This document shows positions 5,011 through 49,000 of a stretch of DNA of 64,000 nt, in pieces. The notes beneath the pieces are model-generated. The model made no database searches and was not told the origin of the DNA. It worked only from the letters and a program-made list of their open reading frames with translations. The stretch's first letter is position 1. Each line of letters opens with the position of its first letter. The position numbers and the translations under genes are program-made. This DNA comes from Aquila chrysaetos chrysaetos (taxonomy: Eukaryota > Chordata > Aves > Accipitriformes > Accipitridae), in assembly GCF_900496995.4 (NCBI RefSeq), contig NC_044009.1, forward strand, positions 35,983,505 through 36,047,504, read 5' to 3'.

Positions 5011-6160
5011 AGGCTCGCCCGTGCCAGGCGGACCTCCCCATCCCCGGCAGCATGGGGCTGTTCAGCTGGGGAGCTCAGCAGGGAGGGATGGGTGGGTGGG
5101 ATCGTGCCCTGCTCTCAGTTGCCCCCTTTTAGATTTGGAGAGTTGCGTGGGGGGTGAGGGGTGCTTGCAGGGTAGCTGGGTTGGTTCCCTGATGTGGGTG
5201 GCTGGAGGAGAGACGCCATCTAAATTTAGGGTGAGGAGGGATCCATGATCCTGGGAACGGATGTGGATACCTAAAGCAGGGTGTGAATGGAAGGAAAAAC
5301 CATGGGCTCTCCTCCTGGCAGGGACCATGCCCCCCTTTCCTTTGCAACATGCTGCCCACCCCATGAACATCCTTAACTCTGCCCCCAGCCTGTTCCTGCC
5401 CTCCCCTCTCTCTGCAGAGAGGAATCAGGAGCTGGGGCCCCAGGGCAGCTGTGTCCATGGGTGAGGGTCCCACTGGGCAGGGGCAGGGAAAGGGGACTCT
5501 CCTTGCTACTCCTTGGTTCCCCACCTTTGTCTCCAAAGCCTTCCTTTCCTCCATCCCTCCTACACCTCCTGCCGATGGTGGCTTCCTCCAGACCTCAGGA
5601 GAAGCCTTGGTCTGGAGAGCAGATGACCTTCATGGGTTAACTCCTGCCCAGGGCAGGGCTTTGCTGTTGGAGGTGCCAGGGGCAGGTGTGAGGGGCACTG
5701 CCAGCCCTCAGGGCAAGGCCAGAGCCTGGAGTCAGCAGAGCCTGGCCCCTGCAACTCTGCCCTCTCTCCAGTATCCAAGGACCATGCCACAGAGCGGGAT
5801 GGTCCCTGAAGCCCTGCACATGAGCCCATGTCCTGCTGGTTACTTCGAAGTTTAATGCTTCAGTTTTACTGTGGCTTTAGCCCCTCACCTGCAGGACTTG
5901 GTGGGACACCCTCCACGGGTGGGGACATCCCCAGGGACAAGGCTGGGTTGGAGGTGGAACAGGAAAAGGGATGACAGCAGGGCTGGGAGCCCTGGGCACG
6001 GAGGGGCAGCCCTGGGTCCCTGCCCCTGTGTCCAAGGAGGTGCCCCCGTCCTCCAGAGCAGGACTTTGGCCCAGTGGATGCAGAAGATGGGCATGCTGGG
6101 CTCTGCGCTGGCTGGGGGGAGGGATTGGTCTTCAATAAAACAGAGAGGTGCTGTGACCTG
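5011..6160 (+). other. FEV: Probable FEV 3' UTR
   Basis: The sequence after the stop codon has no recognisable coding potential. The first canonical AATAAA on the + strand is at 6134-6139, about 1.1 kb after the stop, which would give a 3' UTR of typical length. The true end was not determined. Confidence 0.45.
6134..6139 (+). terminator. FEV: Candidate FEV poly(A) signal
   Basis: AATAAA followed by a GT-rich stretch (GTGCTGTGACCTGTGTCC) about 15-30 nt downstream has the expected layout of a cleavage and polyadenylation site. Confidence 0.45.
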
Positions 6161-8458: not shown

Positions 8459-8831
8459 GTATCTTTGTCTCTGTCTTTACTTAGCCAGCAAGAGGGCAGG
8501 ATTGAGCCCTGCCCTGGCCTCAGCCTCTTGCCAGGATGGTGGGGGACTCCTCCAACTCCCCCAAAGCCTCCCAGCCGCACAGTAAAGGATCAGAGAGGGG
8601 ATGGAGTAGACCCTCTCCTATTTTAGCAGAGCCACGTCACCACTTGCTTAATTTCTCACGCTGGGAAGAGCCTTTGCAGCACAGCTAGGTCACGTCTGCC
8701 CCAGGGGACGTGGGGCTGCCTCCCTGTCCACCCCTGCTGCCCCTCCACCTCTCCCGATTCCCACCTATTTCCTCCTCTCCGCACCCCCGCTGCGCTGGCT
8801 CCTCTGCTCACCCCCCCCCCCCCCCCCAACC

Positions 8832-46094: not shown

Positions 46095-49000
46095 CTGGGC
46101 GGGGAGGGAAGGACAGAGGGGTCAGCATGGAGGAGACATTTTTGGGGGACCGGAGAAGCCATCATGGAGCTCGCTGTGGGCTGGCACTATGGGAACACCA
46201 AGGGCTGGCATGAACAGCCATCAGAGCCCTGGAGCTGCAAAGCCTGTTGCTGTGCCCAGTGTCACCCATGTCCCACACCCTGTCCCTTCCTATCTTGGCA
46301 GTACCAACTGGCTTTTACACTCCAGCAAGTGATCGGCACCTAAAGGGGAGGGTGAGCTACCTGACCATAGGGAGGAGAAGGAGCCAGGGACTCACCTTCC
46401 ACTGCTGCTTGGCTCCAGCAGCATCAACCTGATCCCGGACCCCAACTGAAAGCCAGCGTGGCTGTATCTTTCCAGCCCTACTGGGACTCCCCAGTGCAGG
46501 GGTCCCCCAAGCACCTCACCAGCCAGGAGCACTGCAAGAGGGGCAGGTGGGAGGGATGCTTTTCCCTCCCCAGGGCTTTCCTCCTGTAAAGCCCCAGCTC
46601 TGGGAGTCCCAGGAGCAGCTCTGCTTTCAGCTCTTGCCTGCTTTCTCATGGGAGCCCTGGGCGCAGCGCCGGAAGGCTAAGGCGCTGCCTCCCACCATCA
46701 CCCGAATTTCAGGGATGCTCACAGCCCCAACTTGTGGTTTGGGGAGGCCGCGGGGAGGCTGCATTGAGGCCGGTGCCACACATCCACCCCCGACGAGGGC
46801 CAGGGTGCACGGGCTGGGCTGCAGCTGTGGTTTGGGCTGCGGCTGTGGTTTGGGCTGGCCGGGGAGCACGGCTTGTGCAAGGACCAGAGGCCAGTGCAGG
46901 GGCAAGGAGGACCTTGGGGTCCCTGGACAATGCTGCTGAGCTGGGGTCCCCCTAGGTCCCCCATCCCTGCAAGGGATGCTGCTGCGGCTGTGCCAAGGGA
47001 AACAGCTCATGCTCAGCAATCTCCAGGGGCACAGAGTGGCCGCACATCCCCACAACAGCCTAGAAAGAGACAGTTTATACCATCCTGTGCTCTGTCCTGA
47101 CAGGGATTCCCTGCTGGGTCGCATGCCCCCATGCCCACGTGCTCACACAGGCTCCAGCAAGTCCCCTTCCCATGGGGACACCGAAACCCCGCTGGGAGCC
47201 AGGCTGGGGCTTGCAAAGACTATTGTGGTCTGATCCTCCCACCCAGGGCCACACGCCGAGGCTCAGGGGGAGCCCAGGGGACACGTGGCCCTGCACAAGG
47301 TCCTGTCCCATGATGCCAGCCCTGCCCGGCCGCCCGGCTTCACGCCTGACACGCGCTGCCTGTTCCTGCCCCCTCCCTGGGGGGGATGCGTGTGCGAGGA
47401 GTGCCTTGTTTTGGTAGGGGTGGGTAGTTTTTACTCCTTGTTTTCTTGTTTTTGAGTAAATCTCTCCGTTGCTAAGCAGTTATGGTAATGAAGGCAGGTC
47501 AGGGAAACATGCCTGGAGCTTGGGGCACACGGCAGAGAGGTCTGGGCTGGGCTGGAGTTTGGCTTTCATCCTGCTGAGAGTCCTGTCTCCTGCTGGGAAC
47601 AGCCTCCACCTCACAGGTAATGAGCTGCTGGGCCTCTTCGGCGTGCGCTGGGTGTGCTGGCCAGGAATACCAGCTGCTCGCCACCATCCTTGCCACCATC
47701 CATGGGAACATGGTGGCACTGGGACCCCATCCTTTCCCACATCTCCTCCCTGCTCCCTTGGCCGGACTAGGGAAAATCTGCATATAGGGCTGTGGCTGGG
47801 ATGGTCACCACCGGGATGGAGGGGACAGTGGCATGACAGCTGCACAGGGGCTCATTTGGGGCTGCGGCTGGTTGCAGCACGGGCTGGAGAAGGCAGTGTA
47901 TACGTGCCATCTCCATCACTCAAGCCATCACTGCTGAGCATCCCGAGCCCCAGCACTGCAGCACCCATCCATCCCTGCCCAGGAACAGCTTGTTATTCCT
48001 CCTGCATGGGCAGCACAAGGGGGACAGGACCCTGCCAGAGCCGGGAGACCCGAGAAGGACCCATCTGAGCCTTGGCCCCATGCTTTTGCCATCGGATCTC
48101 CTCCACGCACCTCTACCCGGCCATGTCCTTCCCCGTCTCACAGACACCCGGGTTCGGCACATGCCCGGACTCGCTGGTGCTTTCTTTCGCACATTCCCAG
48201 CTCCTCCCAGACACGCTCATAAGAGCTTTATCGTAGGTCTTTGTTGTGAGGCTAATGGGTAGTTCCTGGCTGCCTTTCATCCTCTCTCACTCTCTGATCT
48301 GGCAGGTTAGGAGGACCTGCAAAGCCTCTTGCACGCTCCTGCTGCTCCTCGCTGGGGAACTTGCTCCCTCCCAAGGATGCAGGACACCCACCTCAGTCTT
48401 GAGTTGGAACAGGAAGCCCCAGGGCTTCCTATTCCAACTCAAGACCAAGGTGACCACTGCCATGGTCGGAGGATGCTGTGCATCCCCTGCAGCTGCAATC
48501 CCCTCTCTGGCTTTGTAGCTGGATGCAAAAGATGAAAAAATCAGGGTGTTTCTGCCTGGTTTCGAACCAGGGACCTTCCGCGTGTCAGGCGAACGTGATA
48601 ACCACTACACTACAGAAACCCACATCCTGCAGCCACTGGATGAGGCCATCGGTGGGATTGTCATCCCAACAGCATTGCAGGGTCTGAGCTGGGAGCCAGG
48701 CTTACCCATGTGCAGAGCACCCTTGGGACACATAGGGACCATGGAGAGGATGCTCAGCATCAGTGAGATGCTGGAGAGCCCTGGGTGCTGCAGCTGCTCG
48801 GTGCACGAAGAGGATGGCACACGGCAGGGCACGGCGCATGGTATGCATGTCCGCGTCACCGCTCTGCTCAACGGGTTGAAGCCTCGAGACTTGGAGGGGA
48901 GGACCACAGAGCTGCTGCATCCAGCATGGCCACTCCTTTCCTGGGAAATCCCAGCAGATTGTTCCCTATTACGGCAGAAAGATGGTCCTAGGAGTGAGGA

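What the first reader, a model, noticed from the sequence alone, without database searches (positions are those of the whole stretch)
48389..48452. Undescribed 31-bp intronic hairpin whose mismatches are all G-U on the WNT10A sense strand
Two 31-nt arms pair around a 2-nt centre. Three positions fail on the + strand as C-A pairs, but on the minus strand (the sense strand of the WNT10A pre-mRNA) every one is a G-U wobble, so the transcript folds into a continuous 31-bp stem. That bias is what a selected RNA hairpin such as a miRNA precursor or endogenous dsRNA would show. With only three substitutions it could be chance (about 1 in 4). The very small loop is unusual for a pre-miRNA. I cannot match it to a miRNA family I know.
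Basis: partly seen in the sequence, partly recalled or inferred. Interest (0 to 1): 0.75.

Follow-up and report, generated by a model that had tools for sequence, protein, structure and literature searches.

The report
Single-copy intronic hairpin, probably replication scar
A short stretch of DNA inside a WNT gene is followed almost at once by its own mirror copy, so its RNA would fold into a long hairpin; it is most simply a leftover of a DNA-copying slip, and nothing here shows that it makes a microRNA.

Summary
At 48389-48452 two 31-nt arms pair around a 2-nt centre. The three mismatches are C·A on + and G·U on −, the sense strand of a Wnt gene, in the intron before its last coding exon. 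It is not chance: 10 Markov-shuffled versions of 264 kb gave nothing as strong. It is not a transposon: the 24-nt core occurs in the 1.23-Gb genome only at its own two arms. No Rfam RNA family matches it at gathering score.

Best explanation: a young, probably neutral quasi-palindrome made in one step by short-range template switching during replication, then changed by a few transitions. A weaker but comparable single-copy hairpin lies in 200 kb sampled from the same contig. The all-wobble pattern is weak evidence for selection: neutral simulations give it on the sense strand in 3-8% of runs, and part may be methyl-CpG decay. A canonical miRNA precursor is unlikely (4-nt loop, about 30-bp stem). 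The boldest open reading is a miR-451-like, AGO2-processed hairpin: right cropped length, but no strong helper hairpin seen nearby and no reads. Orthologues and small-RNA reads, which would decide, were not available.

The parts
48389..48419 (-). 3' arm of the hairpin on the sense (minus) strand
48420..48421 (-). 2-nt centre; with the apical pair, which does not form, it makes a 4-nt loop in the predicted fold
48422..48452 (-). 5' arm of the hairpin on the sense (minus) strand

Best explanation
A young, single-copy quasi-palindrome in the last intron of a Wnt gene, made in one mutational event. During replication the polymerase switched template over a couple of bases, perhaps at a small pre-existing GCCC/GGGC repeat at the centre, copied about 31 nt back along the nascent or opposite strand, and returned. 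This left a perfect inverted repeat, which has since gained a few transitions. The pre-mRNA would fold there, but the hairpin is most probably a by-product with no selected role. Shown: the hairpin, its single copy, its intronic place, its excess over chance. Inferred: the switching event, the seed repeat, its age and neutrality.
For: Near-perfect arms at 2-nt spacing with no similarity found elsewhere: the 84-bp query (64-mer plus flanks) returns only itself and its own reverse match, and the 24-nt core with up to 3 mismatches hits only the two arms. Of 19 matches of the 611-bp neighbourhood, two are this locus itself and 17 fall on its tRNA gene. It scores 22; ten Markov resamplings (dinucleotide frequencies kept) of the same 264 kb reach at most 14. 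Such objects recur: 1 of 20 sampled 10-kb stretches holds a 33-nt-arm, 7-nt-loop hairpin (L025:5629-5701, score 18, 5 mismatches), also single-copy. Template switching is documented: 4017 significant events in great apes, with median copied length 12 and maximum 128, and enrichment in introns, in the gold-standard set (PMC7954356, passages); it is inferred to create perfect stems, including at annotated human miRNA loci such as MIR633 (PMC8794818, abstract and part 1 of the Results).
Against: No orthologue was available, so the event is neither polarised nor dated. 31 nt is well above the median length reported for apes. All three mismatches are sense-strand wobbles, which neutral simulation gives in only 3-8% of runs. 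No equally strong hairpin (score 22 or more) occurred in the 200-kb sample, so it is an uncommon example. The CpG-decay account depends on an assumed CpG rate; without a rate excess its weight is only 0.10.
Confidence: 0.75

Rival explanations
1. Canonical, lineage-specific intronic miRNA: Drosha crops the hairpin from the Wnt pre-mRNA and Dicer makes a 22-nt miRNA.
For: Very stable sense-strand stem; the mismatches keep pairing on the sense strand only; a CNNC lies about 7 nt past the 3' stem base (read by eye from the flank printed); template switching is inferred to have given rise to miRNA loci (PMC8794818).
Against: 4-nt loop and about 30 bp instead of about 35 bp with an apical loop bound by DGCR8 (criteria from passages of PMC7174388); no basal UG at the expected place and no apical UGU (read by eye); no Rfam miRNA family at gathering score. 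The sub-threshold miRNA rows are generic, since an unrelated control hairpin gives rows of the same kind. Twelve short strings of the arms occur in 0 papers of the library's main texts.
Confidence: 0.05
2. miR-451-like hairpin: Drosha crops 13 nt from the base, leaving a 17-18-bp, 4-nt-loop precursor too short for Dicer, which AGO2 loads and slices.
For: 31 minus 13 gives 18 pairs, 17 in the predicted fold, inside the 17-19-bp range for AGO2-routed hairpins (PMC4138324, passages); [quoted passage not shown]
Against: mir-451 is a poor Microprocessor substrate and needs a canonical neighbour (PMC9303283). Of the eight most stable − strand windows listed, the nearest other one is about 890 nt away. 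The top pair is C-G, not the favoured G-U. No mir-451 row among the 61 weak Rfam matches.
Confidence: 0.04
3. Short endogenous double-stranded RNA: the intron hairpin is bound or edited by ADAR or other dsRNA-binding proteins and affects splicing or stability of the Wnt transcript.
For: About 30 continuous pairs in an intron with high predicted pairing in the four flank lengths tested; the mismatches preserve pairing on the sense strand.
Against: No expression, editing or conservation data could be examined; it lies over 2 kb from the ORF ends of either flanking exon.
Confidence: 0.07
4. Palindrome of a transposable element.
For: Terminal inverted repeats commonly make hairpins (general knowledge).
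Against: No second copy in the 1.23-Gb genome by DNA search or by 24-mer with up to 3 mismatches. The DNA search skips very common words, so alone would not exclude a huge family.
Confidence: 0.02
5. Assembly or sequencing fold-back artefact.
For: Fold-back chimaeras create inverted copies (general knowledge).
Against: An artefact copy would be expected to be near-exact; here 3 of 31 positions differ. No reads were available to check.
Confidence: 0.03

Closest known systems
Short-range template-switch mutations that create hairpins (PMC7954356; PMC8794818)
   Same: Near-perfect inverted repeat, short spacer, intronic, single copy.
   Different: Longer than the median 12-nt event in apes; ancestral state unknown here, so the event is inferred.
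MIR633, a primate miRNA locus attributed to template switching (PMC8794818, part 1 of the Results read)
   Same: If the main reading holds: a stem arising at once at a single locus, mismatches added later.
   Different: MIR633 is an annotated miRNA with a reconstructed ancestry; this locus has neither reads nor relatives.
mir-451 (PMC9303283, passages)
   Same: Small loop and, after a presumed 13-nt crop, a short stem.
   Different: No strong neighbour hairpin seen, C-G top pair, no conservation or reads; no Rfam mir-451 row.
L025:5629-5701, another quasi-palindrome in the same genome
   Same: Single-copy, 33-nt arms, short loop, same kind of sub-threshold miRNA matches in Rfam.
   Different: Five mismatches of mixed kind, 7-nt loop.

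Membership tests
Template-switch hairpin | Near-perfect inverted repeat with short spacer, beyond chance | tested here: met
Template-switch hairpin | Arms not shared with other genomic copies | tested here: met
Template-switch hairpin | One arm absent from the ancestral sequence, as seen in relatives | not testable with these tools
   The genome search says the genome has no relatives here; no vertebrate collection is offered
Canonical miRNA precursor | Stem of about 35 bp with an apical loop bound by DGCR8 | tested here: not met
   30 pairs and a 4-nt loop; criterion from PMC7174388 passages
Canonical miRNA precursor | Match to a curated miRNA family | tested here: not met
   No miRNA at gathering score; best sub-threshold 36.1 bits against a gathering score of 93. 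Rfam only; miRBase and MirGeneDB not held. A new family would also fail this
Canonical miRNA precursor | Basal UG, apical UGU, CNNC | tested here: inconclusive
   Read by eye on the strand printed: UG and UGU absent at their places, a CNNC about 7 nt past the base; no statistics
Canonical miRNA precursor | Phased 21-23-nt reads | not testable with these tools
   No read data
mir-451-like AGO2 hairpin | 17-19-bp stem and small loop after Drosha cropping | tested here: inconclusive
   17-18 bp and 4 nt if cropped 13 nt from the base; the crop itself is assumed
[quoted passage not shown]
   Top pair of the predicted fold is C-G; preference from PMC4138324
mir-451-like AGO2 hairpin | Canonical miRNA hairpin nearby to recruit Microprocessor | tested here: inconclusive
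   Nearest other window among the eight most stable listed on − is about 890 nt away; weaker ones not examined; expression unknown
Transposon palindrome | Multiple genomic copies | tested here: not met

The most novel reading that the evidence does not exclude
A newly born, template-switch-derived hairpin in the last intron of WNT10A has become a lineage-specific, Dicer-independent, AGO2-sliced small RNA of the miR-451 type, its three substitutions tolerated because each keeps pairing in the transcript.
Probability: 0.04. Interest if true: 0.6.

Novelty: new member of a known kind. Interest (0 to 1): 0.2.

Why it matters
If the main reading holds, it is one more instance of a mutation process that supplies genomes with ready-made hairpins, useful only as a clean, single-copy example. 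[quoted passage not shown]

Tried and rejected
Transposon palindrome: rejected by the single-copy result. Known RNA family: only a tRNA in the window reaches Rfam's gathering score. Sub-threshold miRNA matches with E-values down to 1.4e-06 (limit E 10) looked tempting, but an unrelated control hairpin from the same genome gives E-values down to 1.1e-05 with mostly other miRNA families (limit E 0.01), so they reflect any long stem. Literature: six 17-mers of the arms and six 14- or 15-mers in U letters are in 0 papers of the 5.39 million searched (main texts; supplements not searched); WNT10A with intron, hairpin, miRNA and chicken listed four papers, none about this as far as titles and abstract starts show. 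A 2023 paper on de novo miRNAs by template switching (recalled, DOI recalled) is not held, and 'template switch mutation' with 'miRNA' finds 0 papers. Strand bias as proof of selection: rejected as too weak. tRNA read-through by polymerase III as a source of the hairpin RNA: not tested; a T6 run lies between the tRNA and the hairpin, so termination before it is expected.

Full report
The object. The + strand at 48389-48452 reads as two 31-nt arms with 2 nt between them; 28 of 31 pairs are Watson-Crick. The three exceptions are C·A on + and G·U on −. As RNA the minus strand folds into 30 continuous pairs with a 4-nt loop, and folds with 50, 100, 200 and 300 nt of flank keep pairs 2-30 at probability 0.90 or more. 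For the same 84 nt the plus strand gives -52.1 and the minus strand -60.9 kcal/mol, but the z-score is more extreme on the plus strand (-10.4 against -9.1). On either strand it is the most stable of 475 windows of the intron.

Place. Three minus-strand exon translations match Pfam wnt at profile positions 2-53, 61-151 and 155-305 (ORFs). The hairpin lies between the second and third, so in the intron before the last coding exon, and the minus strand is sense.

Chance. In a scan for arms with a loop of at most 12 (match +1, mismatch -2), the hairpin scores 22. Ten Markov resamplings of the same sequence (263,819 bases, N left out: window plus 20 stretches of 10 kb, all from contig C6) reached at most 14. 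In the window it ranks first of 115 inverted repeats within 400 nt, 25 of them listed. The hairpin is real and not a chance pairing.

Copies. The 84-bp query returns only itself and its own reverse match. The 24-nt core with up to three mismatches is found once on each strand, both inside this hairpin, and the control pattern zero times. Of 19 matches of the 611-bp neighbourhood, two are this locus and 17 fall on its tRNA gene; of nine of those 17 scanned with ARAGORN, eight hold a tRNA and one (L020) none.

Background. In the 20 sampled stretches (200 kb) the scan found two hairpins of score 14 or more, both in L025: one of score 18 (5629-5701, 33-nt arms, 7-nt loop, 5 mismatches) and one of score 15 (8659-8698, 18-nt arms, 1 mismatch); none scores 22. 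The first is itself single-copy; the second was not searched. One event of score 18 in 200 kb scales to about 6,000 in the genome, with a Poisson range of roughly 150 to 34,000, a rough estimate from one contig. The mismatches of the first are mixed: three wobble on +, one on −, one on neither.

The wobble argument. Starting from perfect hairpins and mutating neutrally until three mismatches exist, all three are wobbles on the sense strand in 3.3-7.6% of runs and on either strand in 6.8-14.5%, over three rate settings and six ancestors, 8,000 runs each. So the pattern is mildly unusual, which counts against pure neutrality, but it was noticed after the fact and rests on three sites. The doublet at 48394-48395 and 48446-48447 reads CA in both arms on +. 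A CpG facing a CpG that decayed in both arms explains this with two hypermutable changes; this ancestor has posterior weight 0.59-0.65 if CpG transitions are 10-fold faster, 0.44-0.48 at 5-fold and 0.10 with no excess. The rates are assumptions; the intron's CpG observed/expected ratio of 0.247 agrees with strong CpG decay. In the simulation, at the same transition rate (kappa 4), a CpG ancestor with 10-fold decay raises the sense-strand chance only from about 3.5% to 5.5%, so CpG decay softens the pattern but does not explain it away.

miRNA. Rfam gives no miRNA at gathering score in the window. With a relaxed threshold 61 rows appear over the hairpin region, best 36.1 bits against a gathering score of 93; the control hairpin behaves alike (10 rows at E 0.01 or less, best 38.4 bits against 70). 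Published criteria (PMC7174388, passages) name a stem of about 35 bp, a DGCR8-bound apical loop, basal UG, apical UGU and CNNC; here the stem is about 30 bp with a 4-nt loop, and by eye UG and UGU are absent while a CNNC is present. The small loop points, if anywhere, to the miR-451 design: cropping 13 nt from the base would leave 17-18 bp and 4 nt. AGO2-routed hairpins have 17-19 bp and prefer a top G-U pair (PMC4138324, passages); mir-451 needs its neighbour mir-144 for nuclear processing (PMC9303283, passages). Here the top pair is C-G, and of the eight most stable sense windows listed the nearest other one is about 890 nt away; weaker hairpins were not examined.

Mechanism. Short-range template switching makes such structures in one step. 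In great apes 4017 significant events were found; the gold-standard events have median copied length 12, maximum 128, and are enriched in introns (PMC7954356, passages). Phylogenetic analysis supports some human miRNA loci having been born that way as perfect stems with mismatches arising later (PMC8794818, abstract and part 1 of the Results). The present locus matches in form; the event itself is inferred, since no relative was available to polarise it. With 3 differences in 31 pairs and a bird neutral rate near 2e-9 per site per year (recalled), the age would be some 20-25 million years, very roughly, predicting absence from distant birds.

Verdict. A true, single-copy, probably neutral replication scar of a known kind; a functional small RNA is possible but unshown.

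Noticed in passing
48545-48619 (minus): A tRNA-Val gene with anticodon GAC lies on the same strand, 92 nt upstream of the hairpin in the sense direction; Rfam 64.9 bits, followed by a T6 run. It differs at 2 positions (anticodon A34 to G, and one A to G that I place in the anticodon stem) from the tRNA-Val-AAC of L004 on contig C91. That GAC is unusual for nuclear valine tRNAs is recalled; the 8 papers listed of 31 settle nothing from what the listing shows.
   Followed up: partly
L019 (G000:C4:38756588-38756661), locus 1501-1574: A second dispersed tRNA-Val-like copy, also with anticodon GAC, 88% identical to the window's tRNA and with further changes.
   Followed up: partly
L004-L016 (G000:C91, about 332-345 kb): 13 matches to the tRNA in a tandem array repeating at about 2.26 kb; the five of these 13 loci scanned hold tRNA-Val with AAC and CAC, two of them also tRNA-Glu.
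   Followed up: no
L025:5629-5701 (G000:C6:8205629-8205701): Another single-copy quasi-palindrome, 33-nt arms, 7-nt loop, 5 mismatches; a smaller one (18-nt arms, 4-nt loop) lies about 3 kb on at L025:8659-8698.
   Followed up: partly
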